A stretch of 64,000 nt of DNA from Solidesulfovibrio fructosivorans JJ] (GTDB lineage Bacteria; Desulfobacterota; Desulfovibrionia; Desulfovibrionales; Desulfovibrionaceae): NCBI RefSeq assembly GCF_000179555.1, contig NZ_AECZ01000005.1:62001-126000 (forward strand). Direction: 5' to 3'. Numbering within the stretch: the first letter of the stretch is position 1; each line of letters opens with the position of its first letter. The translations under genes were made by a program, and so were the position numbers. Below, piece by piece: positions 7,333-33,117 of the stretch. The notes below the pieces were generated by a model. That model was not told the DNA's origin, made no database searches, and saw nothing but the letters and a program-made list of their open reading frames with translations.

Positions 7333-7699
7333 GTTTTTCCGGCCGGATATTTCCGTAGCGACTCCCGGCCGCGAAATGACCGCCCTTTCAGGAGGCGTCG
7401 GCGACGGGATACTGGCCGCGATCCGGTCGTGACGCGTTTCCTTCCCTTTCCTTTCATTTTTTCTGCCGCCGCCCACGGCGAACCTTACCAATCGGCAATT
7501 TTTGCAGCCCGACCGTTTTGCTGTAGTTACAACTATATAATTTTATTTAACAATATATGGATTGATGTTTGCATTGTAACCTTCGAAGGGAAGAATTTTC
7601 CTGCGTGTCGGCTTTGGGCATCCAAGGCCATGGCGGCAACAAGGCAAGTCGGGCGGCGCATCGCCGTCGGGAAATACGAAAGGCAAGGAGAAATCCAAC
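7333..7699. other. 367-base intergenic region upstream of the giant repeat gene
   Basis: No credible gene. The middle (about 7530-7570) is strikingly AT-rich, which is unusual here, and contains a perfect TATAAT. The rest is GC-rich. It probably holds the promoter and a leader of about 150 bases for the repeat protein. A forward frame from 7429 that runs into the repeat gene is an out-of-frame shadow. Confidence 0.6.
7536..7541 (+). promoter_or_regulatory. Perfect -10 hexamer in AT-rich leader of the repeat gene
   Basis: TATAAT lies inside a roughly 40-base AT-rich stretch, 160 bases upstream of the GTG start at 7700. No convincing -35 hexamer lies 16-18 bases upstream, so the promoter may depend on an activator or on another sigma factor. 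Confidence 0.35.
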
Positions 7700-10600
7700 G
7701 TGACTGTATCACTGATCTCTTCGTACAGCGCAGAGGAAATCTCGCATCTGTCCAGGACCGCGCTTCGCAGCCTGTCCGCCACCGGTTTTTCCTCGCTGCT
7801 GGCGACCCAGGTCGCGGCCCTGACCACGACGGAAATGTCCTGGCTGACAGCGGCCCAGGCCGCCGCCTTGACCGTGGACCAGATCATGTTCATGAGCGCC
7901 GAGCAGTTTTCCGGCCTGGGCCGGGCCCAGGTGTCGACCTTCACCACCACGGAAATCGCCTCCCTGACCTCCACGCAGCTTGCCGGGCTGACCGAAACCG
8001 ACATCACCGAACTGACGCGGGCCCAGGTCGCGGCGTTCACGCCCACGCAGATCGCCTCCTTGAGCTCCACGCAGCTTTCCGCCCTGCGCGCGACCCAGAT
8101 CGCCTCCCTCGCCACGACGCAGGTCGCCGCCCTGGATGCGACGCAGCTTGGCGCGCTGACCCCGAAGCAGATCGCCTACCTTTCCACCACGTGCGTCGCG
8201 TCGCTCTCCACCACCCAGGTCGCCGCGCTTTCCACGACGCAGATCGCCTCCCTGACCGGCTACCAGTTCAAGTGCCTCACCACCGAGCAGATCGCGAGTC
8301 TGTCCGTCAGCCAGGCGGCCGCCTTGACCATGACCGAGCTCGCCTCCCTGACGACGACCCAGCTGGCGTTTCTGTCGGCGGAAAATATCGCCGCCCTGGA
8401 CCTTACGTCCCTGAAGTGGCTCACGCGGGAAATCGTCACCAGTCTGGCCGATACCCAGATCGCCGCCTTGTCCCAGGCCCAGATCGGGACGTTGACCAAC
8501 GCGCAGATCAAGTATCTGACCACGGAACAGGTGGCGTCCCTGACCACGACCCAGCTGGCCGGCCTCTCCGCGACCCAGCTGGCATACCTGCAAACGACCC
8601 AGGCCGCCGTCTTGACGGAAACCCAGTTGGCGTCGCTGACTGAGACCCAGATCCAGGGCCTCAACAGCAAGTGCGTCAGCGTGCTGACCATGACGCAGTT
8701 CGAGGCCTTGAGCGAAACCCAGCTCGCGGCGCTGACGCAAAAGCAGATCAGCGGGTTGACGAGAACCGATATCGCCGAGTTGTCCCCGGAGGACCTGGCC
8801 GTGTTATCGTCGACGCAGCTCGCGTCCCTGAACGCGGAGGCCATCAAGGGCTTGAGCGAGGAGCAGATCGCGTCGTTGACCGAAACCCAGATCGCCGGGT
8901 TGACGAAGGCGGAACTTGCCTCCCTCGCCGAAACGCAGATCGCGGCCCTGTCCACCACCCAGATCGCCGCCATCAGCCCCACGGCCTTCGTCGGGCTGAC
9001 GGCCACGGGTATTTCGTATCTGTCCACGGCCCAGATACAGGCCCTGACCACCGGGCAGCTGTCGGTTATCCAAGGCGCGCAGTTGCGCGGCCTGACCGAG
9101 GATCAGATCCGGTATCTGTCCACGACCCAGACCGGCGTGCTGACCCCGACCCAGCTGGCTTCCCTGACGACCACGGCCGCCACGGCCCTGACCGAAACCC
9201 AACTCGCCTCGCTCACCACCACCCAGCTGCGGGGGCTCACCGGCGCATCCATCAGCAGCCTGAGCGGCGAGCAGTTCACGGTCCTGTCCATCGCCCAGGT
9301 GGCCGCCCTGACCACCCTCCAGATCAGGGCGCTGACCAGCACCGACATCAGCGAACTGAGTCTGGCCCAGCTGGCGGCGCTGACCGCGACCCAGATCAAG
9401 TACATCACCGCCGCCGCCCTGGCCGGGCTGAGCGAAGAGCAGGTGGCCCTGCTTTCGGCCACCCAGATGGCCGGGCTTACCAGCGCACAGATCGGGGCGC
9501 TGGCCGACACGCAGCTCGCCGCCCTGACCACCACCCAGATCGCCGGGCTGACCACGACCCAGATTCGGGGCCTCAGCAGCACGGACATCGGCAATCTGTC
9601 CACCGAGCAATTCGCCGCCCTGAGCTCCACCCAGCTCGGCGCCATGAGCACGGTCCAACTGAAGGGCCTGACCGCCGCCGAAATCGAGGTCATGAGCACC
9701 ACCCAGATCGACGGCCTGAGCACGGTGCAGATCGCGTCGCTTTCGCGGACCGTCATCGAATCCCTGGACGAAACCCAACTGGCGTCGCTGAGCCTCAACC
9801 AGCTCAAGGCACTGACCGGCGCGGCCATAAGCCAGCTCGATACGACGCAGCTCGAGGCGCTGACCGCAACCCAGCTGGCCAGCCTGACCACCACCCAGCT
9901 GCGAGCCCTCACCAGCACCGACATCAGTGAATTGAGCCTGACCGTGCTGGCCGCGCTCTCGGCGACGCAGCTTTCCGCCCTGACCGCCTCGGCCGTGTCC
10001 GGGTTCACGGACGAGCAGCTCGCGGCCCTGACCACCACCCAGCTCGCGGGGCTTTCCGCCGCCGGCATCAAGGGGCTTGGCGAGGACCAGATCGCGCAGT
10101 TGACGACCACGCAGATCGCGGCGCTGTCCACCACGGAGATCGAGGCCCTGACGGCCACGCAGGCGGCCGCCCTGACCGACGCCCAGTTGGCGGCGATGAG
10201 CTCCACCCAGCTGCGAAGCCTTACCACAACGGCCATCCGGGCCCTTGGCGAGGATCAGCTCGAGGCGCTTTCCGCCGAGCAGATGGGATCGCTTCGCACG
10301 ACCCAGATCGCGGCCCTGACCGCCGACCAGATCCATTCGCTCTCTGAATCGCAACTGGCCATGCTGGCCACCACGCAGATTTCGGCCCTCAAGACCACGC
10401 AAATCGCGGCCCTGGACGGCACCCAGCTTTCGAGCCTTTCCGTGACCCAGTTTTCCCGGTTGACCGCCACCCAGCTCGCGGCGATCAGCTCCACGGCGGT
10501 GGGCGACCTGACCGCCGAACAGCTTGCCTCCCTGACCGTGACGCAGATCAGGGGACTGAGCAGCACGGGCGTAAGCGAACTGACCGCCACCCAGCTCGCC

Positions 10601-13600
10601 ACCCTGACGTCCACCCAGATCGCGGCCCTTTCCGCCACCCAGATAAGCGGACTTTCGGCCACGGACATGAAGGAACTGACCCTCACGGTGCTTTCCGCCC
10701 TCACGTCCACCCAGATCGGCGCCCTGAGCGCGGAGGCCATTGAGGCGCTTTCGAGCGAGCAGCTGGCCGCGCTGACCACGACCCAGCTGCGGGGCCTGGG
10801 CAAGACCCAGAGCGAGGCGCTTTCCGCCACGCAGCTCGCCTCGCTCACCACCACTCAGCTCACGGCCCTTTCGACCACCGCCGCAAGCGGCCTGACCGCG
10901 ACCCAGATGCGGGCGCTGGCCGACACCCAACTGGCGGCGTTGACCACGACCCAACTTGCCTCCCTGACCACCACGGCGCTTCACGGTCTGGCCTCGGAGC
11001 AGATCGCGGCTCTTTCCACGACCCAGCTGCGCGCCCTGACCACGACCCAGGTGGCCGGCCTTACGACCACGGTGGCCGCCGCGCTGTCCACGGAGCAGCT
11101 CGCGGCCCTGACCCTGGCCCAGACCAAGGCCTTAAGCGGCACGAATCTGAGCGTGTTGACGTCGACGCAGATGGCGGCCCTGTCCGAAACCCAGCTCTCG
11201 GCCCTGACCCCCACCCAGATCAGCGGGCTGACCAGCACGGACGTGGCCGAACTGACCCTGACCGAGCTTGCGTCGCTTTCCTCCACCCAGCTGTCCGCGC
11301 TTTCCACCGACGCCCTGCAGGGGCTGACCACGGAAGAGATCGCGGCGCTGACCGCCAGGCAGGCCAAGGGCCTGACCGCGACCCAGCTCAATTCCCTGGA
11401 GACGTCGCAACTGGCCGCGCTTTCCACCACCCAGGTGGCGTCGCTTGCGACCAGCGCGATAAGCGGGCTTAGCCGCGACGCGCTTGCCGCGCTGACCACG
11501 GAGCAGTTGGCCGGGTTGACGGCCGGGCAGATGTCCGCGCTTTCCACAACCGCCCTGGCCGGCCTTTCCGAGACCCAGATCGCCTCCCTCGCCACCACCC
11601 AGCTACACGGCCTGAGCCAGACCCAGATGGGCGCGCTGACCGAAACGGAAGTCCGGGCCCTGACTGGCGAGCAGCTTTCCGCCCTGACCAGCACCCAGCT
11701 GCGGGGACTGACCGCAACGGCGGTCAGCGCCCTGACGTCCACCCAGATCGCCTCCTTGAGCGAGCGGCAGTTGGCCGGGCTTTCCCTGGCCCAGGTAAAC
11801 GGGCTCACCAGCACGGACGTGTCCGAGCTGAGCCTGACCGAACTGGCGGCCCTGACGTCCACCCAGCTCGCGGCCCTGTCCGAAGAGGCCGTGAAAGGGT
11901 TGACCGCGACCCAGCTTGCGGCCCTGACGTCCACCCAGCTTTCGGGGCTGACCGCCACGGAGATCGCGGCCCTTTCCACGACCCAGCTTTCGGCGCTTTC
12001 CTCCACCCAGCTTTCGGCGCTTTCCACCGAAGCCATCGGCGGCCTCAGCAAGACCGAGCTCGCCGCGCTGACCACGACCCAGCTTGACGGGCTTTCCTCC
12101 AGCCAGATCGCGGCCCTGACCACGAGCGCCCTGACCGGACTCGACGCGACCCAGATCGCCTCGCTTGAAACCTCCCAGCTTCGCGGGCTGGCCGCGACCC
12201 AGCTCAACGCGCTGACAACGACCACGCTTGCCTCGCTGACGGACACGCAGCTGGCCTCCCTGACCACCACCCAGATCGCGTCGCTTTCCAGCACCGGCGT
12301 CAGTTCCCTCACCCGGACCCAGGTCGCGGCCCTGACCTCATCCCAGTTGGCCGCGCTGACCGCCACCCAGATCGCCGGCTTCACCAGCACGGATGTATCC
12401 GAACTGACCCTGACCGAGCTTGCGGCCCTGACCCCGACCCAGTTCGCGGCGCTCTCCGAAACCGCTCTGGAAGGGCTGGCCGTCACGCAGATGGCCGCCC
12501 TGACCACCACCCAGCTCGGGGGGCTCACCGGCGAGGAAATCGCGGCCCTGGAAAGCACCCAGCTTGCGGCCCTTTCCTCCACCCAACTGGCCGCGCTTTC
12601 CGCCGACGCCGTAAGCGGCCTTGAAGCGACGGACATGGCCGCTTTTTCCGCCACCCAGCTTTCGGGGTTTTCCTCCACCCAGATCGGGGCGCTGACCACG
12701 AAGGCCTTTGCCGGCCTTTCCGAGACCCAGATCGCCTCGCTGGCGACCAGCCAGCTTCGGGGCCTGACCGCCACCCAGCTGGCAGCCTTCACCACCACCG
12801 AAGCGGCGGCCTTGACCACCACCCAGCTGGCTTCGCTTTCCACCACCCAGCTCGCGGCCTTGAGCGGCGACGGCGTCTCCGGCCTCGACGCGACCCAGAT
12901 CGCCAGGCTGACCACGACCCAGATCGCCTCGCTTTCCACGACCCAGGTCGCCTCGCTTTCCAGCACCGATCTCGGCGAATTCACCACGAAGCAGATCGCG
13001 GCCCTGACCGAGGCGCAGATCAGCGCGTTTGTCGCCTCGGCGCTTACCGGCCTCGACGCGACGCAGCTTTCGGCCCTGACCAGGACCCAGTTGGCCTCTT
13101 TGTCCTCCACGCAGCTGGCCGCCCTGGGCACGGACCAGATCGCCTCGCTCGCCACAACGCAACTGGCCGCCCTGAGCGCGACCGCCATGGCCGGCCTGAC
13201 GGCCGACGAATTCGCCGCCTTGTCCCCGCAGCAGCTGGCGGCGCTTTCCTCCACGCAGATCGCGGGATTGTCCACGACCACGCTGAGGGCCCTGTCCGCC
13301 ACGCAGATGGCCTCCCTGTCCGGCACCCAGCTTTCCGCGCTGACGTCCACCCAGTTTTCGGCCCTGACCACCAGCCAGATCGCGTCCCTGACCACGACCG
13401 AGCTGGCCGCGCTTTCGACCACCACCCTGGCCGGCCTGGCCGCGACCCAGCTCGGGGCCATGACCGCCGACCAGCTGGCTTCGCTTTCCACCGAGCAGGT
13501 GGCGGCGCTTTCCGCCGCGGCCATACACGGCCTGACCACCACCCAGGTGGCCTCGCTTTCCACGGAACAGGTGGCGGCGCTTTCCTCCACCGAGATCGCG

Positions 13601-16600
13601 GCGTTAAGCGACAGCCAGATCGCCTCGCTGACGCAAACCCAGATCGAAGCCCTGACCACGAGCCAGATCCGGGCGCTTTCCATGACCCAGATCGGCGACC
13701 TGACCACCCGCCAGATCGCGGCCCTGACCACGACGCAGATCGACGCCTTCACCACGACCGCCATGGCCAGCCTCACCTCGAGCCAGGTGCGCGCGTTGCG
13801 GGAAACCCAGCTGGAACGGCTGACCGGCAGCCAGGTGGCGGCGCTTTCCACCACGGCCATAAGCGGCCTGACGGAAACGGAGATCGCGGCGCTTTCGCCC
13901 AGGCAGCTGGCGGCCTTGACTGCCGCGCAGCTGGCGGCGCTCTCCACCACGCAGCTTGATTCCCTGGCCGCGACCCAGTGGGGGAGCCTGACCGCCACGG
14001 CCATGGCCGGGTTGACGGCCTCCCAGGCGGCGTCCCTGACTTCGACCCAGTTGGCCGGGCTTTCCACGGAACAGGTGGCGGCCCTTTCCGAAACGGCCAT
14101 CGGCGCCCTGACCACCACCGCCCTGGCCGGGCTTGCGGCGACCCAGATGGCCGCCCTGACCGGCACCGAGATTTCCGCCCTGACCGGAAGCCAGCTGGCT
14201 TCCCTGTCCACGACGCAGCTGGCCGCCCTGTCCGCCACGCAGATGGCGGCGCTCTCCGAGACGGCCATAAGCGGCCTGACGACGACCGAACTGGCGGCGT
14301 TGAGCCCGGAACAGCTTTCGGCCCTGACCTCGACCCAGATCGCGGGGCTCACCGAATCCCAGATGCAGGCGCTGTCCGCGACCCAGATCTCCCAGTTGAG
14401 CCTGACCCAGATCGGCGGCCTCTCCGCCACCCAGATCACGGCCCTGACCGCCGACCAGCTGGCCGCCCTGTCGGAAAGCCAGTTGACCGCGCTCTCCGTG
14501 GCCGCCGTGCGGGGGCTTTCGGCCGAGGACATCGCCTCGCTTTCCACCACGCTTCTGGCCTCGCTGACCGCGACCCAGATCGGCGGTCTGACCGCCACCC
14601 AGGCCGCGGCCCTGACCACGACCCAGCTGGACGTCCTGGACGTGGCGCAGCTGGCGGCGCTGACCACGACCGCCATCGCGGCCATGACCGCGACCCAGAT
14701 CGCCTCGCTTTCCGCCACCCAGACGGCGGCCTTGACCACCACCCAGGTCGGGGCGCTGACCAGCGACGCGGTGCGGGCGCTCGGCGCCGAGCAGCTCGCC
14801 GCCCTGTCCACCAGGCAGGTGGCGGCGCTTTCCACCACGGCCGTGGCCGGGCTCACGCCGACCGAGCTGGACTCCCTGACCACCCGGCAGTTGGCGGCGC
14901 TGACCACGACCCAGATCGGCGCGTTGACCACGACCCAGCTTTCGTCCCTGACCACCACCCGGTTGGGACAGCTGACGGCCACCGAGATGGGCGGGCTCAC
15001 CTCCACCCAGCTGGCCGCGCTGACCACGACCCAGCTTGCCGCGCTTTCCACCACCCAGGTGGCGTCCCTTGCCGCCTCGGCCATGGCCGGGCTGACCGCG
15101 ACCCAGCTGGCCGGGTTGTCCGAAAGCCAGTTCGCGGCGCTCACCACGACCGAGCTGGCCGGGCTGACCACGACCCAGGTCGCGGCCCTTGGCGCCGCGC
15201 GGATAAGCGGGCTGACCGCGACCCAGCTGGCCGGGCTGACCACGACCCAGATCGGCGCGCTGACCGAAACCCAGTTGGCGGCGCTTTCGACCACGCAGAC
15301 GGCGGCTCTGACCACCACCCAGGTTTCGGGCCTGACCGCGACCCAGCTGGCGACGATGACCGCGACGCAGCTTTCGGCGCTGACCACGACCCAGGTCGCG
15401 CACCTCTCCACCACGGCCGTTTCGGGCCTGACCGCGACCGAGCTTGAGGCGCTCGACTCCAAGCAGTTCGCGGCCCTGACCGCGGCCCAGATCGGCGCGC
15501 TGACCCCGACCCAGGTCGGCTCCCTGTCCGCGACCCGCCTGGCGGCGCTCTCCACGACCCAGGTCGCGAGCCTGACGTCCTCCGAGATCGCGGCCCTGTC
15601 CACGACCCAGCTTTCGGCGCTGACCCCGACCCAGATCGCGGACCTGTCGAGCACGGGCGTTTCCGGCCTGACCGCCGACCAGATCGCGTCCCTGTCCCCG
15701 CAGCAGCTGGCGGCGCTTTCGACCACGCAAATGGCGGCGCTTTCGACCACGGCGCTTTCGGGACTCACGGCCACGGGCATCGCGGCCCTGTCCACCACCC
15801 AGTTAAGCGGCCTTTCGGCCACCGGTATGGGGGCGCTGTCGACCACGGCCATCGCCAGCCTGACGGCCAAGCAGCTTGCGGTCCTGACCACCACGGAACT
15901 CTCGGGGCTCACGTCCTCGCAGGTCGCGGCTCTGTCCACGACCCAGATCGACGAACTGACCACCAGGCAGCTGGCGGCGCTTTCGACCACGGGCATCTCC
16001 GGCCTGACCGCGACCCAGCTGTCCAGCCTGTCCACCAGCCAGCTGGCGGCGCTCTCCACCGAGCAGATCGGGGCCATTGCCGCCACGGCCATCGCCGGCT
16101 TCAGCACGACGCAGCTGTCCAGCCTGACCGCGACCCAGTTCAAGAGCCTCTCCGAAACCGGCGTCTCCGGCCTCTCCGCCACCCAGCTGGCCAGCCTGAC
16201 CACCGAGCAGGTGAAGATGCTGACCACGACCGAGATGGGCGGCCTGACCGCGACCCAGGTGGGGGCGCTGACCGATACCCAGTTCGCGGCCCTGTCCGTC
16301 AGCCAGATCGCGGCCCTGTCGATCTACGGCATCAAGGGACTGACCGAAACGCAGATCGCGGACATGTCCACCACCCAGTTCGCGGCGCTGACCTCCACCC
16401 AGATCGGGGCGCTGACCACCACCGAGATCGACAGTCTGTCGACCACGCGGATGGCGGCCCTGACCACGACCCAGATCGACGGCTTCAACCGCGTGCAGCT
16501 GCGGTCGCTGAGCACCGAGCAGTTGCAAGCGCTCAGCACGACCCAGGTCGCATCCATGGACGAAACCCAGATCTCCAGCCTGACCGCCACCGAAATGCGG

Positions 16601-16888
16601 AACCTCACGGCGGCCCAGCTGGCCATCCTCAGCTCCACCCAGATCGGGGCCATGGGCGCCGAACAGTTCGGTTCCCTGACCGCGACCCAGATCGGCTCCC
16701 TGTCCGGGGTGCAGCTCGGCGGCCTGACCACGACCACCATCTCCAGGCTCTCGACCACGACCATCGCGGCCCTGACCACGGAGGAGATCGACGCGCTCAA
16801 CGCAACCCAGCTCAATGCCTTTACGACGACGCAATTGGCTTCTATGACGGAAGCACAGCTTGAAGCGGTGGAAAACGCCAAGGCTTAA
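7700..16888 (+). CDS. Giant octapeptide-repeat protein, Ser/Thr/Ala/Leu/Gln-rich, 3,062 residues
   Basis: Starts at GTG 7700 with AAGGAG nine bases upstream. After nine residues the whole protein is a tandem array of 8-residue repeats, consensus [ST]-x-[TSA]-[QE]-[ILV]-[AS]-[ASG]-L. The 24-base register of the first Ser/Thr codon was the same at every place checked from 7727 to 16871, giving 381 octads with only five residues beyond the last. No signal peptide, membrane segment, enzyme domain or sorting motif is visible at either end. Ser/Thr at position 1 with Gln/Glu at position 4 is a helix N-capping box, so a solenoid of very short helices is possible; a beta-solenoid, as in ice-nucleation octapeptides, is the alternative. 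Synonymous codons vary, so the array is not a recent DNA expansion. The next gene is a GT41 glycosyltransferase, which suggests the protein is O-glycosylated. Function unknown; a surface, adhesive or structural role is a guess. Confidence 0.9.
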   Translation: MTVSLISSYSAEEISHLSRTALRSLSATGFSSLLATQVAALTTTEMSWLTAAQAAALTVDQIMFMSAEQFSGLGRAQVSTFTTTEIASLTSTQLAGLTETDITELTRAQVAAFTPTQIASLSSTQLSALRATQIASLATTQVAALDATQLGALTPKQIAYLSTTCVASLSTTQVAALSTTQIASLTGYQFKCLTTEQIASLSVSQAAALTMTELASLTTTQLAFLSAENIAALDLTSLKWLTREIVTSLADTQIAALSQAQIGTLTNAQIKYLTTEQVASLTTTQLAGLSATQLAYLQTTQAAVLTETQLASLTETQIQGLNSKCVSVLTMTQFEALSETQLAALTQKQISGLTRTDIAELSPEDLAVLSSTQLASLNAEAIKGLSEEQIASLTETQIAGLTKAELASLAETQIAALSTTQIAAISPTAFVGLTATGISYLSTAQIQALTTGQLSVIQGAQLRGLTEDQIRYLSTTQTGVLTPTQLASLTTTAATALTETQLASLTTTQLRGLTGASISSLSGEQFTVLSIAQVAALTTLQIRALTSTDISELSLAQLAALTATQIKYITAAALAGLSEEQVALLSATQMAGLTSAQIGALADTQLAALTTTQIAGLTTTQIRGLSSTDIGNLSTEQFAALSSTQLGAMSTVQLKGLTAAEIEVMSTTQIDGLSTVQIASLSRTVIESLDETQLASLSLNQLKALTGAAISQLDTTQLEALTATQLASLTTTQLRALTSTDISELSLTVLAALSATQLSALTASAVSGFTDEQLAALTTTQLAGLSAAGIKGLGEDQIAQLTTTQIAALSTTEIEALTATQAAALTDAQLAAMSSTQLRSLTTTAIRALGEDQLEALSAEQMGSLRTTQIAALTADQIHSLSESQLAMLATTQISALKTTQIAALDGTQLSSLSVTQFSRLTATQLAAISSTAVGDLTAEQLASLTVTQIRGLSSTGVSELTATQLATLTSTQIAALSATQISGLSATDMKELTLTVLSALTSTQIGALSAEAIEALSSEQLAALTTTQLRGLGKTQSEALSATQLASLTTTQLTALSTTAASGLTATQMRALADTQLAALTTTQLASLTTTALHGLASEQIAALSTTQLRALTTTQVAGLTTTVAAALSTEQLAALTLAQTKALSGTNLSVLTSTQMAALSETQLSALTPTQISGLTSTDVAELTLTELASLSSTQLSALSTDALQGLTTEEIAALTARQAKGLTATQLNSLETSQLAALSTTQVASLATSAISGLSRDALAALTTEQLAGLTAGQMSALSTTALAGLSETQIASLATTQLHGLSQTQMGALTETEVRALTGEQLSALTSTQLRGLTATAVSALTSTQIASLSERQLAGLSLAQVNGLTSTDVSELSLTELAALTSTQLAALSEEAVKGLTATQLAALTSTQLSGLTATEIAALSTTQLSALSSTQLSALSTEAIGGLSKTELAALTTTQLDGLSSSQIAALTTSALTGLDATQIASLETSQLRGLAATQLNALTTTTLASLTDTQLASLTTTQIASLSSTGVSSLTRTQVAALTSSQLAALTATQIAGFTSTDVSELTLTELAALTPTQFAALSETALEGLAVTQMAALTTTQLGGLTGEEIAALESTQLAALSSTQLAALSADAVSGLEATDMAAFSATQLSGFSSTQIGALTTKAFAGLSETQIASLATSQLRGLTATQLAAFTTTEAAALTTTQLASLSTTQLAALSGDGVSGLDATQIARLTTTQIASLSTTQVASLSSTDLGEFTTKQIAALTEAQISAFVASALTGLDATQLSALTRTQLASLSSTQLAALGTDQIASLATTQLAALSATAMAGLTADEFAALSPQQLAALSSTQIAGLSTTTLRALSATQMASLSGTQLSALTSTQFSALTTSQIASLTTTELAALSTTTLAGLAATQLGAMTADQLASLSTEQVAALSAAAIHGLTTTQVASLSTEQVAALSSTEIAALSDSQIASLTQTQIEALTTSQIRALSMTQIGDLTTRQIAALTTTQIDAFTTTAMASLTSSQVRALRETQLERLTGSQVAALSTTAISGLTETEIAALSPRQLAALTAAQLAALSTTQLDSLAATQWGSLTATAMAGLTASQAASLTSTQLAGLSTEQVAALSETAIGALTTTALAGLAATQMAALTGTEISALTGSQLASLSTTQLAALSATQMAALSETAISGLTTTELAALSPEQLSALTSTQIAGLTESQMQALSATQISQLSLTQIGGLSATQITALTADQLAALSESQLTALSVAAVRGLSAEDIASLSTTLLASLTATQIGGLTATQAAALTTTQLDVLDVAQLAALTTTAIAAMTATQIASLSATQTAALTTTQVGALTSDAVRALGAEQLAALSTRQVAALSTTAVAGLTPTELDSLTTRQLAALTTTQIGALTTTQLSSLTTTRLGQLTATEMGGLTSTQLAALTTTQLAALSTTQVASLAASAMAGLTATQLAGLSESQFAALTTTELAGLTTTQVAALGAARISGLTATQLAGLTTTQIGALTETQLAALSTTQTAALTTTQVSGLTATQLATMTATQLSALTTTQVAHLSTTAVSGLTATELEALDSKQFAALTAAQIGALTPTQVGSLSATRLAALSTTQVASLTSSEIAALSTTQLSALTPTQIADLSSTGVSGLTADQIASLSPQQLAALSTTQMAALSTTALSGLTATGIAALSTTQLSGLSATGMGALSTTAIASLTAKQLAVLTTTELSGLTSSQVAALSTTQIDELTTRQLAALSTTGISGLTATQLSSLSTSQLAALSTEQIGAIAATAIAGFSTTQLSSLTATQFKSLSETGVSGLSATQLASLTTEQVKMLTTTEMGGLTATQVGALTDTQFAALSVSQIAALSIYGIKGLTETQIADMSTTQFAALTSTQIGALTTTEIDSLSTTRMAALTTTQIDGFNRVQLRSLSTEQLQALSTTQVASMDETQISSLTATEMRNLTAAQLAILSSTQIGAMGAEQFGSLTATQIGSLSGVQLGGLTTTTISRLSTTTIAALTTEEIDALNATQLNAFTTTQLASMTEAQLEAVENAKA
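8759..13534 (+). repeat. Higher-order repeat: 24-octad (576-base) units inside the giant gene
   Basis: A four-octad signature (xxTD[IV]xEL, then xLT[EV]LAAL, xxTQ[LI]xxL, xxxA[ILV]xGL) begins at 8759, 9335, 9911, 10655, 11231, 11807, 12383 and 12959. Successive spacings are 576, 576, 744, 576, 576, 576 and 576 bases, that is 24 octads in six cases and 31 in one. A related marker at 7991 is 32 octads before the first. Beyond 13535 this marker is lost and the second half has no fixed larger period that I could find. This points to growth by duplication of 192-residue blocks. Confidence 0.75.
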
Positions 16889-16992: not shown

Positions 16993-19023
16993 ATGACCAA
17001 CGATATTCTTTCTCCGGCGCTCCTGACCTCCATGGCGGCCTCGTTTAGCGTCACCGACCTCATCAAGACGGCGGAAACCCTCAAGCACAGCGGACAGACG
17101 GCCTCGATCGAGACGGTCTACGCCGCCTGGCTGGGGCATCATCCCGACGATCCGCTGCGTTACGCGGTGCTCTTCAACTATTCCGTCGCGCTCCAGGACG
17201 TCGGCAAACTGGACGCGGCCCAGGAGAGCCTCGAACAGGCCATCGCCCTGCACCCGGAGTTCATGCCGGCCTATATCAATCTCGGGCGCATCTACGAGCG
17301 GCAGGGCAAGATCGGCCTGGCCGTCATCCAATGGTCGGCCGGTTTGGCCAAGATGGGGGCCGTGACCGGCACGGCGGTCATGCACAAGACCACGGCCCTC
17401 AACCAGAGCGCCCGGGCGCTCGAAGCGCTCAACCAGGACGAGAGCGCGGAAAACATGCTGCGCGAAAGCCTGCAGCTCGACCGCCAACAGCGGGAGGTCG
17501 TCCAGCATCTGATCGCGCTTAGGCAGCGGCAATGCGAATGGCCGGTGCTTTTGCCCTCGGAACGGGTGGACCCCACGCTGCTCCTCGAAGGCATGTCGCC
17601 CCTTTCCGCCGGGGCCTTTGCCGACGACCCCATCCTGCAACTGGCCGTCGCCGCCAGGTACAACCTGCTCGACGTCGGCCTGCCCGAAGGGGCGCATTTT
17701 TCCTGGCCCAAGGCCATGGAGAAGACCGGGAAGTTGCGCATCGGCTACCTTTCCTCGGACATGCGCGAACACGCCATGGGCTACCTCATGACCGAAATCT
17801 TCGGGCTCCACGACAGGAGCAAGGTGGAGGTCCACGCCTACTACTGCGGCATCGAGACGAACGACGGCCTGCACGGGAAATACAAGAGCGACGCCGACCA
17901 TTGGACCTCTATCAGCCAGATGGACGACGCCGCGGCGGCCCGGAAGATCGTGGACGACGGCATCCAGGTTCTTGTCGATTGCAACGGCTATACCCGGGAC
18001 GCGCGCCTGAAGCTCGTGGCCCTGCGCCCCGCGCCGGTCATCATCAACTGGCTCGGCTATCCCGGCACCATGGCCAGCCCGTACCATCACTACATCATCG
18101 CCGACGACTGGATCATCCCGGAAAATCACGAACTCTACTATACGGAGAAGGTCCTGCGCCTGCCGTGCTACCAGCCGAGCAACCGGACAAGGACCGTCGC
18201 CCCGGAGCGTCCCACCCGGGCGGAAGCGGGGCTGCCCGAAGAGGGCATGGTCTATTGCTGCTTCAACGGCCTGCACAAGGTGCACCGGTTCACCTTCGAC
18301 CGCTGGCTTTCAATCCTGGCCGGAGTGCCGGGAAGCGTGCTGTGGCTGCTCGGCAGTTCCGAGACGGTGGAGAAACGGCTGCGCGACTACGCCGCCGGGC
18401 GCGGCATCGCCGGGGAGCGGATCGTTTTCGCGCCCAAGGTCAAAAATCCGAACCACCTGGCCCGCTATCCCCTGGCGGACCTCTTTTTGGACACCACGCC
18501 CTACGGCGCGCATACCACCGCCTCGGACGCGCTCTGGATGGGCGTGCCGGTCCTGACCTTAAGCGGCCGGTCGTTCGCCTCCCGGGTCTGCGGCAGCCTG
18601 GTGCGCGCGGCCGGATTGCCGGAGATGGTGTGCGAAACGCCCGAAGCCTTCGTCGAGCGGGCCGTGGCCTTCGGCAAGGACCCGCAATCCCTGCGGGCCG
18701 TGCGGGAAAAGCTGGGCGACGTCCATGACTCCTGCGTGCTCTTCGACATGCCGCTGCTTGTAAGCAAGCTCGAAGAGCTCTACGCCCAGGCCTTCGAGGC
18801 GTTTACAGCCGACCGGCTGCCGCGACCGGACCTGACCAATCTCGACGCCTACCTGGAAGTCGCCACCCGCATGGACCACGAAGCCCAGGATGTGCAATCC
18901 CTCGGGGACTACCACGGCTGGTGGTCGGAACAGCTCGCCAAACGCCACCGGCTGCGCCCCCTTGCCCGCGACCGTAGACTCGTTACCGATGTTGAGAAAT
19001 TCCCGGGAATTGAAGAGCATTAG
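16993..19023 (+). CDS. TPR-containing family 41 glycosyltransferase (O-linked GlcNAc transferase type)
   Basis: 676 residues. The N-terminal 180 or so form tetratricopeptide-like helices (the clearest repeat is YAVLFNYSVALQDVGKLDAA through AYINLGRIYERQGK). The catalytic half carries the SPINDLY/OGT signatures: RIGYLSSDMREHAMGY near 248, NWLGYPGTMASPYHHYIIAD, then PLADLFLDTTPYGAHTTASDALWMGVPVLTL with SGRSFASRV following. Family members move N-acetylglucosamine or a related sugar from UDP-sugar to Ser/Thr of proteins in the cytoplasm; bacterial examples modify flagellins, adhesins or EF-P. Start ATG 16993 has only a weak AGGCGG site. Its position 104 bases behind a giant Ser/Thr-rich repeat protein, on the same strand, makes that protein the obvious candidate substrate; this is inference. 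The TAG stop is the first triplet of a palindromic intergenic module. Confidence 0.92.
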   Translation: MTNDILSPALLTSMAASFSVTDLIKTAETLKHSGQTASIETVYAAWLGHHPDDPLRYAVLFNYSVALQDVGKLDAAQESLEQAIALHPEFMPAYINLGRIYERQGKIGLAVIQWSAGLAKMGAVTGTAVMHKTTALNQSARALEALNQDESAENMLRESLQLDRQQREVVQHLIALRQRQCEWPVLLPSERVDPTLLLEGMSPLSAGAFADDPILQLAVAARYNLLDVGLPEGAHFSWPKAMEKTGKLRIGYLSSDMREHAMGYLMTEIFGLHDRSKVEVHAYYCGIETNDGLHGKYKSDADHWTSISQMDDAAAARKIVDDGIQVLVDCNGYTRDARLKLVALRPAPVIINWLGYPGTMASPYHHYIIADDWIIPENHELYYTEKVLRLPCYQPSNRTRTVAPERPTRAEAGLPEEGMVYCCFNGLHKVHRFTFDRWLSILAGVPGSVLWLLGSSETVEKRLRDYAAGRGIAGERIVFAPKVKNPNHLARYPLADLFLDTTPYGAHTTASDALWMGVPVLTLSGRSFASRVCGSLVRAAGLPEMVCETPEAFVERAVAFGKDPQSLRAVREKLGDVHDSCVLFDMPLLVSKLEELYAQAFEAFTADRLPRPDLTNLDAYLEVATRMDHEAQDVQSLGDYHGWWSEQLAKRHRLRPLARDRRLVTDVEKFPGIEEH

Positions 19024-19155: not shown

Positions 19156-19210
19156 GGGACCTGGGGGGAGAACCTTTCTTCAGAAAGGTTTCCCCCCAGG
19201 TCCCTTTTTT
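19156..19210. terminator. Palindromic module, part B, copy 1; strong terminator
   Basis: GGGACCTGGGGGGAGAACCTTTCT (19156-19179) pairs with 19182-19204 with one bulge and is followed by six T. It is a textbook intrinsic terminator for the + strand. The stop codon of the converging radical-SAM gene (19180-19182) lies in the loop, so that protein's last residues are encoded by the palindrome. A degenerate relative occupies 54030-54075, again downstream of a part A copy. Confidence 0.8.
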
Positions 19211-20406
19211 CCTCCCCCCCATTCCTCTCCCATAGCCCCGCGCATGTCGGCGTCGGGGCTGGTCTTGACCAGAAAGGCGGGGCGGTAGCCCAGGCGTTTT
19301 TTGAGCAGCGGCCCGGCGGTTGTTTCGGGGATGGGCGCGAGTTCCGAGGCGCCGTGGCGGGCCAGGTACACCGGGTCCACGCCGTCGCAGGCGTTTCGGG
19401 CCGGGCAGTCGGCGCACTGGGCCGGGAAGAGCTTGAAGCGGTCGCCGCGCATGCCGCAAAGCGCGGTGCCGTCGGGGAGTTTTTCGGCGAGCGGGGAGAA
19501 GGCATGGACCGGGCGCACGCCTTCTTCCGGAATTGGCAAGGGCTCGGCGCAGTAGGCCGGCGGCCGGTCGTGGTTGAGGCAGCGGTTGCGCCATTCGTAG
19601 GGGTCGTAGGGCACGCCGAGGACCCCGACCACATGCGCCGCCAGGGACGGAAAGGCGCACAGCGGCACGTAGCGGATGTTGGCCGCGACCCGGCCTTCGG
19701 TCAGGATCGCCACGGCTTCTTCCAGATAGGGGCTGATTTTCGTGTACGATGCGGCCAGGGCGGCGGCTTGCTCCATGCCGCGCCAGGCATGGTAGGCGTT
19801 GAACGCGATGAAGTTGACGGCGTAGACGCCCCGGGAGACGGCCAGCCGGGCGATGGCCGGGAGGGTGCGGCGGTTTCGCTCCAGCATGACCGTGTTGCAG
19901 GCGTACTGGAAGCCGCGCGCGTCCAGGGCGTCCATGGCCGCAAGCAGGGTGGGCAGGGACCCGCCGCAGGTGGCGGCAAAGGCGTCCGCGTCGGCGGCAT
20001 GGAGCGAAAAGAGCAGGTCGGTCAGGCCCGCTTCGAGAAGCCGGTCGAGGAGCCTGCGCCCGTCGCGCTTGCGCAAAAGGAACTGCCCGAGGGTGATGCA
20101 GCGCACGGCCAGCCCGGCGGCAACGGCTTCGGACACGATCTCCACGAGTCCCTTGTGTACGGTCGGCTCGCCGCCGGTGATGTCGAGATGGGTCAGCCCA
20201 TTGGCGGCAATGGCCCGGACGATGGCGATGCACGAGGCGGTATCGCGCATCCTGGCCCGGCGCAGGGCGGCAAATTGTTCCGGCCCGCCGTCGAGAAAAC
20301 TGTAATAGCAGAAGGCGCAGGAGTGGGGGCAGGCAAGCCCCAGGTCAAGCACCGCGCCTCGGCCGAGGCGCCCTGGCGTATGGAAGGCGACGCCGGGAAA
20401 GGTCAT
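19180..20406 (-). CDS. Radical SAM protein with C-terminal Cys-rich (SPASM-like) region
   Basis: 408 residues. The cluster motif CPHSCAFC (Cys26, Cys30, Cys33) binds the 4Fe-4S cluster that cleaves S-adenosylmethionine; LDITGGEPT is the SAM-binding GGE motif. The C-terminal third has paired cysteines (CADCPARNACDG) like those holding auxiliary clusters in SPASM and MoaA-type enzymes. ATGA overlap with the upstream glycosyltransferase (20403-20406) shows coupling. It is a paralogue of the + strand gene at 26063: both share NFIAFN, AN[IV]RY[VF]PLC and the CDG-containing tail. The substrate is unknown; the glycan-type setting suggests sugar or peptide modification. The last residues (GGKKGPGGKPF) come from the palindromic repeat and are probably not conserved. 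Confidence 0.88.
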   Translation of the reverse strand: MTFPGVAFHTPGRLGRGAVLDLGLACPHSCAFCYYSFLDGGPEQFAALRRARMRDTASCIAIVRAIAANGLTHLDITGGEPTVHKGLVEIVSEAVAAGLAVRCITLGQFLLRKRDGRRLLDRLLEAGLTDLLFSLHAADADAFAATCGGSLPTLLAAMDALDARGFQYACNTVMLERNRRTLPAIARLAVSRGVYAVNFIAFNAYHAWRGMEQAAALAASYTKISPYLEEAVAILTEGRVAANIRYVPLCAFPSLAAHVVGVLGVPYDPYEWRNRCLNHDRPPAYCAEPLPIPEEGVRPVHAFSPLAEKLPDGTALCGMRGDRFKLFPAQCADCPARNACDGVDPVYLARHGASELAPIPETTAGPLLKKRLGYRPAFLVKTSPDADMRGAMGEEWGGGKKGPGGKPF

Positions 20407-21233
20407 GGCGCGACATCCCCCTTGTCCACGGCCGCCCGGGCTTGGCGCACGAGTTCCTTGGACTCTTCCAGAAGCCTGGCCCAGTTGTCCGGGGCGTGGA
20501 TATCCACCCGCCGGCTTTGGGGATGGTCCCGCACGGCCATGAGCGCTTGCGGCACGTGGACGAAGCGCGCCCCGGCCAGGGCGAAGCGCTGGAACATGTC
20601 GTGGTCGTGGGCGAGGAGGGCCGGGTCGTAGAGGCCGCAGCGGTCATGCAGGGCGCGCGCGTAGAGCTTGCACACGCCAAGCAGGTACCAGTTTCCGAAG
20701 CAGGCCGTAAAGCCGTAGTCCGGCAGGGCGAAGCGGCGCAGCACCCGCATGGCGTCGTCCACGATGTGCATGTCGCCGTAGGCGAAGTCCGCGCCGCTTT
20801 CCGTAAGCGCCGCGACGAGGCTCGCCAGCATGTGGGGATAGGCCAGGTCGTCGCAGGGCACGTAGGTGCAGTACTCGCCCGTGCAGGCGGCGATGCCGGT
20901 ATTGAGCGTCTGGCCGAGGCCCTGGTTGCGCTCGTGGCGCACGAGGCGCAAGGCGCGGCCTGCTGCGGGGTAGACCGGGTGCCGGGTCCGCTCGATGACG
21001 TCGCGGTCCGCGTCGTAACGGCTGGCGAACGAGGTCCGGAGATTTCCCAGGTCGTCCTGGAAGTGCGCCAGTTCCTCCGGGGTGTCGTCCGTGGAACCGT
21101 CGTCCACGACCACGATTTCAAGGGCCGGATAGTCCTGGAACCACAGGGAATCCAGGCAGGGGCGCAGGTAGCGGGCCTGGTTGTAGGCCGGCACGACCAC
21201 GGACACCGTGGGAAAGGGGGCGTGTTGCGGCAT
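20403..21233 (-). CDS. Family 2 glycosyltransferase (GT-A fold)
   Basis: 276 residues. VSVVVPAYNQARYLRPCLDS followed by EIVVVDDGSTDDT is the nucleotide-binding start of GT2 enzymes; the metal-binding pair lies in the YVPCDDLAYP segment, where Asp-Asp stands for the DxD motif. Start ATG 21233 has GAGGTGG seven bases upstream, better than the in-frame TTG 18 bases earlier. It uses a nucleotide sugar to extend a glycan; acceptor unknown. It is cotranscribed with the radical-SAM gene (4-base overlap) and diverges from the next glycosyltransferase across about 240 bases, so the cluster is organised as two divergent units. Confidence 0.9.
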   Translation of the reverse strand: MPQHAPFPTVSVVVPAYNQARYLRPCLDSLWFQDYPALEIVVVDDGSTDDTPEELAHFQDDLGNLRTSFASRYDADRDVIERTRHPVYPAAGRALRLVRHERNQGLGQTLNTGIAACTGEYCTYVPCDDLAYPHMLASLVAALTESGADFAYGDMHIVDDAMRVLRRFALPDYGFTACFGNWYLLGVCKLYARALHDRCGLYDPALLAHDHDMFQRFALAGARFVHVPQALMAVRDHPQSRRVDIHAPDNWARLLEESKELVRQARAAVDKGDVAP

Positions 21234-21475
21234 GGGGCGGCCACCTCGCAAGGCCGGTGAAAGTTTGGCATGATCGACGCATGCGGTTTGGATTACGGCC
21301 GTTTTTTCCCGGTAGCGGGCCGGACGCCTCCCCGGATGTACGGGATAAAGCGGGGTGTGGTCCAGGGGAGGGCCGCCGGCGCTTTACGCCCTGAAGCCGG
21401 CTGGCGTATGTTTGGGCAAGGAAATTTTCGCGCCGGGCAAGGCGCGGGGTATTTGTCGGAGAGCCGGAAGAAAAC

Positions 21476-22630
21476 ATGTTCGCATGCGATCCCAGATTGG
21501 AAGCCGTCGGCGTCGTCCGGCCGCTCGTTTCCATCATCGTCACCAGCCACAACTACGCCCGGTTCATCGTCGCCTGCCTGGAGTCCGTGCGCGGCCAGAC
21601 CTACACGGCCTGGGAGTGCATCATCGTGGACGACGCCTCCACGGACGACACGCATGCGGTCCTGACCGCCTATCTGGCCGGGCCGGGGAGCGGGGCGCCC
21701 TTTCGCTACGTTCGGCGGGACGGCAACGGCGGGCAGATGGAGGCCTTCCGCGACGGCTTGGCCCTGGCCAAGGGGCCCTTCGTCATGATGTGCGACGCCG
21801 ACGACGCGTTGCTGCCCGATTTCCTGGAAACCCACATGGCCGTGCACCTCGGGACCAAGGCCGTGGCCTTTACCAGCAGCAACCAGTACCAGATCGACGC
21901 CTCCGGCGCGGTCATCGCCGGAGACCACCCCGACCATCTGGCCAAGGGGTTCTACCGCTACGTGCCCCAGCAGGATTTCCAGAAAACCTGGTGGATCTGG
22001 GCCACGGCCAGCTCCATGGTCTTTCGGCGGGCCACCCTCGAACTGATCATGCCCGAGCCCGGCGTATCCTTTCCCATCTGCGCCGATTACTACATCGCCC
22101 ACTTCTGCCAGCAGGTCGGCAATTCCATCCTTATCCCCACCATTCACGGTTGCTACCGCCGCCACGGGGAGAACAATTTCAGCGCCAACCCCCTGGTCGG
22201 GGCCGTAAACGCCCTGGGCGACGTGTCGAAGCATCCGCCCCACGACGCCTTTCGCCAGGCCATCATCGCCCATGTGCTGGCCCATTACGACAGGTTCAAA
22301 CCCATTTTCGGGCCCCAGGGCCTGCTGGTCATGCTCTACCGGCTGGCCCGCTACGACGAGATGCGCCGCATCCTGGCGGAGCACGGGGACAAGTTCGCGC
22401 CCTGCGGCCGGGGGCTTTTGCGCCGCTACGTCCGGTTTCGCCTGACGCGCTTCGCCTATGACCGCAGCCCCTTTGACGCGCGGCTCATGGTCATCGATCC
22501 GCCCCAGACCGCCTTTGTGCCGCCGCCGCCCGTTCCGGGCCGCATCTGGCTCGGCCGGCTGCGCCATTGGCTGGGGACGCTTTTCGCGGGAGCGCAACCG
22601 ACACCGGAGGCTTGTCGCCATGGAAGTTGA
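21476..22630 (+). CDS. Family 2 glycosyltransferase, copy 1 of a duplicated pair
   Basis: 384 residues. It starts with VSIIVTSHNYARFIVACLES and CIIVDDASTDDTH, the GT2 nucleotide-binding elements; DADDALLPDF supplies the DxD-type metal site. The segment from NGGQMEAF through GCYRRHGENNF is nearly the same in the glycosyltransferase at 24031, so the two are paralogues flanking two cytidylyltransferase-like genes. A C-terminal tail of about 100 residues rich in Arg, Leu and Pro is unlike the other copy. Probably transfers a sugar in the cytoplasm to a lipid-linked or protein-linked glycan. It overlaps the next gene by 11 bases. First gene of a tightly packed + strand operon. Confidence 0.9.
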   Translation: MFACDPRLEAVGVVRPLVSIIVTSHNYARFIVACLESVRGQTYTAWECIIVDDASTDDTHAVLTAYLAGPGSGAPFRYVRRDGNGGQMEAFRDGLALAKGPFVMMCDADDALLPDFLETHMAVHLGTKAVAFTSSNQYQIDASGAVIAGDHPDHLAKGFYRYVPQQDFQKTWWIWATASSMVFRRATLELIMPEPGVSFPICADYYIAHFCQQVGNSILIPTIHGCYRRHGENNFSANPLVGAVNALGDVSKHPPHDAFRQAIIAHVLAHYDRFKPIFGPQGLLVMLYRLARYDEMRRILAEHGDKFAPCGRGLLRRYVRFRLTRFAYDRSPFDARLMVIDPPQTAFVPPPPVPGRIWLGRLRHWLGTLFAGAQPTPEACRHGS

Positions 22631-23327
22631 TCCGTTGGTGGTGGGGCTTATCATGGCCCGGGGCGGCGGCTCCACCCTCTACCGGAAAAACGCTTTCCGG
22701 CTCCACGGGAAGCCGGTCCTGGCCTGGGCCATCGACATCCTGCGGCGGGCGGGCTTTGTCGACACGGTCTTCGTCTGGACCGAGGATGCGGAACTGGCGG
22801 CCATCGCCCGGGAGGCCGGGGCCGTGGCCCTGCCGCGCCCCAAGGACATGGTGCATTATTTCGGCGGCAGCTGGACCGCCGGCGAGTGGAGCCGCACCCA
22901 GGACCGGCAGATCGCGGATCATCTGGGCCGGCCGTACGACATTGTGGTGCCGCTCAATTGCAATTGCGTGTGCCTGCGGCCGGAGAGCCTGCGGACCATG
23001 TACGATCTTTTGCGCCGGAGCCGGGGCCGTGTGTTTCGCGTCCAGGCCGTCAGCCGTGTGGCCGGAGGGCTGTGCCTGGAGCATCCCGCCAACGGCCGGC
23101 TTTTTCCGGTCTGGAACGACACGGACCGGACGCCGGACGCCAACCCGCCGCTTTTCCGCATGGTCGGCGCGGCCGTGGTCGACCGGGCCATGCCCAATGC
23201 CGGCGACATCGCCACCCGCTACCACGAGGTGTCGCCCCGGGAGGGGTTCGACTTCCAGCACGCGGACGACATCCCCTTTGCCCTGCATTACCTGGCCGAC
23301 CGGGCGCGGGAAGAGGGGGCGTCATGA
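22620..23327 (+). CDS. Cytidylyltransferase family protein (NeuA/KdsB-like sugar activation)
   Basis: 235 residues from ATG 22620, with GGAGG upstream. The N-terminus LIMARGGGSTLYRKNAFRL resembles the IPARGGSKxIPxKN nucleotide-binding loop of CMP-acylneuraminate and related synthetases, followed by the usual GKPVLAWAID helix. The family joins CMP to acidic sugars (sialic, legionaminic or pseudaminic acids, Kdo), which suggests such a sugar is used here. No sugar-biosynthesis enzymes (NeuB/NeuC or Pse/Leg sets) are in the window, so the substrate is open. The start lies inside the preceding glycosyltransferase gene (11-base overlap) and the stop overlaps the next start (ATGA). Confidence 0.82.
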   Translation: MEVDPLVVGLIMARGGGSTLYRKNAFRLHGKPVLAWAIDILRRAGFVDTVFVWTEDAELAAIAREAGAVALPRPKDMVHYFGGSWTAGEWSRTQDRQIADHLGRPYDIVVPLNCNCVCLRPESLRTMYDLLRRSRGRVFRVQAVSRVAGGLCLEHPANGRLFPVWNDTDRTPDANPPLFRMVGAAVVDRAMPNAGDIATRYHEVSPREGFDFQHADDIPFALHYLADRAREEGAS

Positions 23328-33024: not shown

Positions 33025-33117
33025 GGTTGTACTCCGTCGGCATCGTCCCGGAAAGGCTGCCAGTCGTTCCAAGGACAATGCCCTGGGACAGCCATGCAGC
33101 ATTGTTTAAAAGTTACT

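What the first reader, a model, noticed from the sequence alone, without database searches (positions are those of the whole stretch)
7700..16888. A 3,062-residue protein that is one uninterrupted octapeptide array (381 octads)
Seen: the first Ser/Thr codon of each repeat stays at the same position modulo 24 at every point checked between 7727 and 16871 (including 7751, 7823, 7991, 8759, 9335, 10559, 12959, 13223, 14303, 15695, 16463, 16679 and 16847), leaving only nine residues before and five after the array. Insertions or deletions that break the octad seem excluded, although synonymous and amino-acid changes are many, which points to strong structural selection. The [ST]-x-x-[QE] capping box with Leu at position 8 suggests either a solenoid of two-turn helices or a beta-solenoid; no known domain accounts for it.
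Basis: partly seen in the sequence, partly recalled or inferred. Interest (0 to 1): 0.85.

Follow-up and report, generated by a model that had tools for sequence, protein, structure and literature searches.

The report
Giant octad-screw protein with sugar-adding enzyme
A sulfate-reducing bacterium carries a 3,062-residue protein made of one eight-residue motif repeated 381 times; the motif belongs to a catalogued repeat family of unexplained function, it probably coils into a helical screw, and in several bacterial groups its gene sits next to a gene for an enzyme expected to attach sugars to proteins.

Summary
In detail: window 7700-16888 (+) encodes 9 residues, 381 octads without a register break, and 5 residues. 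Eleven of 13 congeners carry matching arrays, so it is no sequencing artefact. 'No known domain' is wrong: it is Pfam PF20080 ALTTAQ repeat, and a solved chain, 9zem 'HeliScrew4', has the same octad. AlphaFold2 predicts one short helix per octad.

New here: (1) a second period of 3.43 octads (24/7), above shuffles in 69 of 73 arrays and 10 of 14 further runs, read as the superhelical turn; lengths of related arrays tend to differ by whole turns. (2) A TPR-GT41 (OGT-like) gene follows within 4 kb in 56 of 73 informative loci; 14 of the other 17 have a GT41 elsewhere. In the genus its close orthologue is present with the array (12 species) and absent without it (2). (3) Type I secretion genes flank some relatives, not this one.

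Most likely: an O-glycosylated, secreted alpha-solenoid surface fibre. Glycosylation, export and function are inferred, not shown.

The parts
7685..7690 (+). AAGGAG, Shine-Dalgarno-like, 9 nt before the GTG start
   Evidence: read from sequence
7700..16888 (+). 3,062-aa ALTTAQ-repeat protein (stop included); 308 kDa and pI 4.2 computed; 947 Ser/Thr in the 3,048 array residues
   Evidence: PF20080
7700..7726 (+). N-terminal head of 9 residues ending ISSY; most relatives with a complete start have a similar ...ISS[LY] or variant before the first octad
7727..16870 (+). 381 octads, consensus [ST]-x-T-Q-[LIV]-A-[AGS]-L, no register break; superimposed period of 3.43 octads and a 24-octad (192-aa) higher-order similarity
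16775..16885 (+). last four octads and tail; strongly conserved in the genus and resembling the ends of many relatives (ATQ[IL]-x-AF-TTTQL-x-x-M and variants)
16871..16885 (+). C-terminal tail ENAKA
16993..19023 (+). TPR + Glyco_transf_41 (OGT-like) glycosyltransferase, 676 aa, starting 104 nt after the array's stop codon; proposed cognate enzyme

Best explanation
The gene makes a giant alpha-solenoid in which each octad is one short helix ([ST] N-cap at position 1, Q at position 4 as capping box, hydrophobic 5 and 8 in the core) and about 3.43 octads make one superhelical turn, so 381 octads would be about 111 turns. The adjacent TPR-GT41 enzyme is its dedicated O-glycosyltransferase: its TPR domain binds the array in the cytoplasm and its catalytic domain adds sugar to Ser/Thr, most likely at octad positions 2-3. 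The product is then exported, by a type I secretion system in several relatives and by an unknown route here, and forms a glycosylated surface fibre of set length. Shown by computation: the array, its family, the conserved gene pair, the 3.43-octad period, the tendency of lengths to change by whole turns. Predicted: the helical solenoid. Inferred: that the period is the turn, glycosylation of the array, export, surface location, and any role in attachment or protection.
For: Fold. Period: 69 of 73 arrays exceed the best of 30 shuffles in the 3.37-3.49 band, mean 3.429, sd 0.011, and 10 of 14 further runs not used to choose the band. Lengths: of 84 related pairs of unequal length, 60 differ by a whole number of turns within about 0.1 turn, e.g. 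7, 24, 31, 96, 120 octads; phase concentration reached by 1 of 20,000 random draws, and a period scan on lengths alone peaks at 3.43-3.44. Enzyme pairing: GT41 downstream on the same strand within 4 kb in 56 of 73 informative loci, 45 of 62 outside the genus; 4 of the other 17 have one elsewhere in the locus, and 10 of the remaining 13 have a 49-59% identical one elsewhere in the genome. In the genus 12 of 12 array-bearing genomes have the close orthologue (68-91%; 100% in the window's own), 2 of 2 array-less ones do not. The enzyme aligns with XcOGT over 538 residues at 290 bits, with the OGT 110-kDa subunit at 292 bits and with SPINDLY at 179 bits. Export: ABC plus HlyD genes within 8 kb of the array in 15 of 89 loci and in 4 of 6 plasmid records read (of 55 that matched), two of those with TolC; nucleotide-sugar genes beside three of the four. 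Precedent: FlmG of Caulobacter, a soluble TPR-glycosyltransferase whose TPR part binds flagellins (PMC7591256, passages).
Against: No type I secretion gene was seen beside the array in the window, and the ABC type found beside arrays elsewhere is present in both array-less congeners and absent (best 34%) from array-bearing G006. No signal peptide, RTX repeat, adhesive domain or anchor is visible by eye in the 14 non-array residues; no predictor was run. Ser/Thr at positions 2+3 does not differ between arrays with and without a nearby GT41 (70 versus 15 arrays, p = 0.48). L086, L108 and L118 and G113 and G214 lack a close GT41. The 3.43 period is not above shuffles in 4 of 73 arrays (L086, L089, L104, L119) and 4 of 14 further runs (L125, L129, L132, one in L135), and it was not checked on coordinates. 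In 24 of 84 pairs the length difference is off phase (11 involve L099, 12 the 311-octad arrays), and 260 against 261 octads in one group also is. Since similarity within an array peaks at whole turns, recombination between similar repeats could by itself give whole-turn length changes. Foldseek gave no good PDB match (TM at most about 0.4 among the 50 of 397 hits shown).
Confidence: 0.55

Rival explanations
1. The array is a cytoplasmic O-glycosylated scaffold or filament, not exported in this organism; type I secretion genes beside it in some lineages reflect a separate use.
For: No secretion gene adjacent in the window, none visible as a signal in the 14 non-array residues; the secretion type does not co-occur with the array in the genus; FlmG, a comparable enzyme, acts in the cytoplasm.
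Against: ABC plus HlyD near the array in 15 of 89 loci and in 4 of 6 plasmid records read, two with TolC.
Confidence: 0.25
2. The protein is an unglycosylated structural repeat; the neighbouring GT41 modifies something else (for example another surface protein or polysaccharide) and the pair travels together by history.
For: Ser/Thr at positions 2+3 is not lower where no GT41 lies nearby; L108 and L086 keep Ser/Thr at position 3 (0.71, 0.66) without a close GT41 in the genome.
Against: The pair occurs with the same order and strand in named Alphaproteobacteria, Desulfovibrionales, a Myxococcales MAG and two Verrucomicrobia-type MAGs; presence and absence coincide in the genus. The four arrays with summed Ser/Thr fraction at positions 2 and 3 below 0.8 (L119, L128, L129, L137) have no GT41 nearby, though the genomes of L119 and L128 hold one elsewhere, and the threshold was chosen afterwards.
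Confidence: 0.15
3. Low-complexity repeat expansion with no specific function; the long frame reflects GC-rich codon periodicity.
For: High GC (0.655), long overlapping frames on both strands, tandem repeats at DNA level.
Against: dN/dS 0.28-0.38; 350 octads in six species, some pairs sharing only 55-73% of array residues position by position; 352 distinct octads in 381.
Confidence: 0.03

Closest known systems
Pfam PF20080 ALTTAQ repeat
   Same: Same octad; the window protein is a member by score.
   Different: The model is a 38-residue profile; the entry as shown says nothing on turn period, length rule or partner enzyme. No paper holding the words ALTTAQ or PF20080 in the library searched.
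PDB 9zem chain A, 'HeliScrew4' (120 aa)
   Same: Same octad in register over 110 residues, E 2.3e-17.
   Different: Has Pro, Glu or Asp at most positions 2-3 where the window is rich in Thr; only 15 octads. Its title, origin and coordinates were not seen; no paper with that word found.
FlmG-flagellin O-glycosylation of Caulobacter crescentus (PMC7591256, passages read)
   Same: Soluble TPR plus glycosyltransferase protein that recognises its substrate through the TPR part, in the cytoplasm before export.
   Different: Substrate there is flagellin and the sugar pseudaminic acid; here the presumed substrate is an octad solenoid and the donor is unknown.
[quoted passage not shown]
   Same: Stack of helices (predicted here).
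   Different: One short helix per 8 residues, where the listed classes use two or three helices per about 30-40 residues (recalled); the words ALTTAQ and octapeptide do not occur in that review's text.
Fibrillar adhesins (PMC8286594, passages read)
   Same: Long repetitive stalk, possibly at the surface.
   Different: No adhesive domain; the definition there needs at least one adhesive domain besides stalk domains.

Membership tests
PF20080 ALTTAQ repeat | score above the curated cut-off | tested here: met
   1129.3 bits against 26.4, 116 stretches; 79 separate matches in the genome, all in this frame
alpha-solenoid | repeating helices stacked into a superhelix | tested here: inconclusive
   helix in every octad, mean pLDDT about 93, pTM 0.82-0.84; coordinates not available, no convincing fold match
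HeliScrew (9zem) | sequence similarity to the solved chain | tested here: met
   E 2.3e-17 over 110 residues; structure itself not seen
GT41 / OGT-like enzyme (gene 16993-19023) | TPR repeats plus Glyco_transf_41 domain, with the Lys and His-Thr-Thr motif of the nucleotide site (roles recalled) | tested here: met
   Pfam 275 bits; CFNGLHK aligns with NFNQLYK of the OGT 110-kDa subunit, GAHTTASDALW with NAHTTASDALW of XcOGT
GT41 / OGT-like enzyme (gene 16993-19023) | transfers a sugar to Ser/Thr of a protein | not testable with these tools
   donor and acceptor need an experiment
type I secretion substrate | adjacent ABC-HlyD(-TolC) genes | tested here: inconclusive
   met in 15 of 89 loci and 4 of 6 plasmid records read; not seen in this window
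type I secretion substrate | RTX nonapeptides near the C-terminus | tested here: not met
   full translation shows only octads
fibrillar adhesin | stalk plus adhesive domain | tested here: not met
   no adhesive-domain Pfam hit; 14 residues outside the array

The most novel reading that the evidence does not exclude
ALTTAQ proteins are phase-locked molecular screws: an alpha-solenoid built from an unusually small unit, winding 24 octads per 7 turns, in which evolution mostly adds or removes whole turns, and in which a dedicated bacterial OGT-like enzyme decorates hundreds of regularly spaced Ser/Thr. This would be a widespread, undescribed class of O-glycosylated, secreted surface fibres of genetically set length, and the natural substrate of a group of bacterial OGT homologues.
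Probability: 0.4. Interest if true: 0.85.

Novelty: new variant of a known kind. Interest (0 to 1): 0.72.

Why it matters
Bacterial OGT homologues are common but few have a known substrate (recalled). Here a gene pair conserved across several bacterial groups names a candidate substrate, with 781 Ser/Thr in octad positions 1-3 of one protein. The sequence alone gives a helical period of 3.43 octads and a tendency of lengths to change in whole turns, both directly testable against the 9zem coordinates and by cryo-EM. If right, it gives a structural class of surface fibre, an enzyme that modifies it, and a regular scaffold for displaying sugars.

Tried and rejected
Beta-solenoid: rejected, no strand in either model. 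Sequencing frameshift: rejected. Other Pfam hits of the array (CAAP1 136 bits, LRR_EndoS 94, Sigma70_r4_2 41) exceed their curated cut-offs, but CAAP1 and Sigma70 have no single stretch that passes and all are far below PF20080; with the LRR-type PDB hits I take them as Leu-periodicity matches. Phage origin: no PHROG family. Mesothelin as fold relative: TM 0.21-0.41, not used. Idea that Ser/Thr at positions 2-3 marks arrays with a neighbouring GT41: overall test negative (p = 0.48); only the low tail fits, noticed afterwards. In the Cereibacter, Rhizobium, Shinella and Pseudomonas plasmid arrays Ser/Thr at position 3 is low (0.09-0.28) and sits mainly at position 2. Idea that type I secretion co-occurs with the array in the genus: not borne out; in G004 the match is in two frames. 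Strict collinearity of 381-octad arrays across genera: weak (0.43 identity against 0.42 at a 24-octad shift), so only the equal number is claimed; L060 and L124 are themselves 78% identical. A period-2 signal at the edge of the spectrum is the top peak in 20 of 73 arrays and is left unexplained. Papers: nine searches; those for ALTTAQ, PF20080 and HeliScrew returned none; the library holds open-licence papers only and no preprints, so this does not show that nothing is in print.

Full report
Observation. The frame 7700-16888 (+) is 9 residues, 381 octads and 5 residues. Lag-8 identity is 0.38 against 0.06-0.11 off the octad; none of 378 four-octad windows fits another register better. An unexpected second feature is a similarity at 24 octads (192 residues): neighbouring octads share on average 3.06 of 8 residues, octads 24 apart 4.01.

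Family and fold. Pfam PF20080 ALTTAQ_rpt scores 1129 bits, so the repeat is catalogued. By sequence, the solved chain 9zem 'HeliScrew4' is the closest PDB entry, E 2.3e-17; it is not among the 50 of 397 Foldseek hits shown, from a copy that ends in April 2026. AlphaFold2 from the single sequence of 30 octads at 14927-15646 gives mean pLDDT 93.1, pTM 0.84; 240 residues from 7703 with ten aligned relatives give 93.6 and 0.82; both show one 4-6-residue helix per octad and no strand. No scrambled control could be sent, so the confidence of a model of repeats should be read with care.

Organism. In the genus 11 of 13 other species have the repeat; of 21 family members from other genera 1 has a weak match, of 24 from the rest of the order none. 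Elsewhere it is patchy: 2 of 297 genomes drawn from the phylum, the window's own included, and 6 of 289 from the class of G065, that genome included.

Numbers of octads. In the genus nine complete arrays have 381 (window, L038), 350 (L036, L037, L039, L043, L044, L045) or 343 (L040) octads. Positional identity among the six 350-octad arrays is 0.55-0.95, against 0.40-0.42 when shifted by one octad. Two arrays outside the genus, L124 (from a genome of the same family) and L060 (a deltaproteobacterial MAG), also have 381. Among the other complete arrays six have 180 and two have 193. Length is thus often equal within groups, though over all loci with complete frames it ranges from 117 to about 553.

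The turn. A spectrum of residue use along the octad index has its top peak at 3.42-3.43 octads in all nine genus arrays, power 26-36 against at most 11.7 in 100 shuffles each. Of 73 arrays with a run of at least 60 octads, 69 exceed the best of 30 shuffles in the 3.37-3.49 band; the mean period of these is 3.429 (24/7 = 3.4286); it is the top peak in 53, while 20 have a stronger signal at period 2; L086, L089, L104 and L119 fail; 3 more arrays were too short. Of 14 further runs, from loci fetched later, 10 pass and 4 fail, and in 10 the top peak is another period; three loci had no run long enough. Folding four genus arrays on this period shows one face with Ala or Gly for Gln at position 4, Val at 5 and Gly at 7. 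I read this as the superhelical turn. Lengths give a second, partly independent sign: of 84 related pairs of unequal length 60 differ by whole turns within about 0.1 turn, for example 7, 24, 31, 96 or 120 octads, that is 2.04, 7.00, 9.04, 28.00 and 35.00 turns. Pairs are not independent, so the test was made on the 18 different lengths in four groups: phase concentration 0.80, reached by 1 of 20,000 random draws; a scan of periods on lengths alone peaks at 3.43-3.44, with a close rival at 3.86. L099, the 311-octad arrays and the 260/261 group are off phase. Because repeats a whole number of turns apart are the most alike, recombination might produce this without selection.

The partner enzyme. 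The next gene, 16993-19023, is TPR plus Glyco_transf_41. Among 80 loci (the window, 13 genus loci, 66 others; 5 duplicate fetches dropped), 56 have it downstream on the same strand within 4 kb, 17 do not, 6 end too early and 1 holds no usable array frame. Of the 17, four have a GT41 elsewhere in the locus. The genomes of the other 13 were searched: 10 hold one 49-59% identical to the window's enzyme; L086, L108 and L118 do not. In the genus the close orthologue (68-91%; 100% in the window's own genome) is present in all 12 genomes with an array and absent in both without, one of which has GT41 relatives at 31-35%. In the five other array-bearing genomes of the class sample (G113, G214, G248, G276, G344), 3 have it (47-53%), G113 and G214 do not. 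By PDB score the enzyme is nearer to OGT than to SPINDLY.

Export. In 15 of 89 loci, 14 of them named or identifiable as Alphaproteobacteria and one unnamed, an ABC transporter of the type I kind (L094: TIGR01846 591 bits, below its 725 cut-off) and a HlyD protein lie within 8 kb; 4 more have the ABC gene alone. Fifty-five plasmid records matched the array; I read six. Cereibacter sphaeroides and Pseudoroseomonas cervicalis have ABC and HlyD, two Pseudomonas plasmids have ABC, HlyD and TolC; a Rhizobium and a Shinella plasmid have none in the stretch. GT41 was confirmed by Pfam in five of the six, and genes of dTDP-rhamnose, UDP-glucuronate decarboxylase or GDP-mannose dehydratase stand in three. 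In the two Pseudomonas proteins a further stretch with LDLNGDG follows the array. In Solidesulfovibrio the transporter type does not track the array.

Mechanism. Position 1 Ser/Thr as helix N-cap and Gln 4 as capping box would be structural (inference); positions 2-3, rich in Thr though Thr is a poor helix former (recalled), would carry the sugar. The TPR part of the enzyme would hold the array as in FlmG. Position 2 has the highest dN in three of five pairs and position 3 in two; positions 4 and 8 have the lowest in all five. The expected drop of Ser/Thr where no enzyme is nearby was not seen overall, so the acceptor positions remain a guess. With 9-10 Angstrom per turn, a typical helix spacing (recalled), 111 turns would be of the order of 100 nm; the rise was not measured.

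Verdict. The array is real and belongs to a catalogued repeat family; the turn period, the whole-turn tendency of lengths and the OGT pairing are what I could not find described in the papers searched.

Noticed in passing
window 10981-16227 (-) and other frames inside 7700-16888: Very long open antisense frames (1,748 aa and others) overlap the array; they follow from its 24-base codon periodicity and high GC and are not taken as genes.
   Followed up: partly
window 37014-37126: Tandem GGC/GGT-rich repeats that in one frame would encode a Gly-Ser-rich stretch.
   Followed up: no
window 19183-25173: Downstream genes include a radical SAM protein, three family-2 glycosyltransferase matches and a PseF-like cytidylyltransferase match far below its cut-off; they could supply or extend glycans.
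   Followed up: partly
window 29195-33043 (-): 1,282-aa protein with two ABC ATPase stretches and an ABC-2 membrane domain in one frame.
   Followed up: no
L132 and L102 (both genome G065): One genome carries two arrays: one followed by GT41 and one with an ABC transporter gene upstream.
   Followed up: partly
L135 and L138: Arrays on two plasmids fall into several shorter reading frames, so the array appears broken or mis-sequenced there.
   Followed up: no
L117: Runs of 23 scored octads recur nine times in a row, i.e. a 24-octad unit with one odd octad.
   Followed up: no
L037 and L046 (G003, G002): The GT41 match there contains one stop codon by the search's count; whether it is real or near the natural end was not examined.
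   Followed up: no
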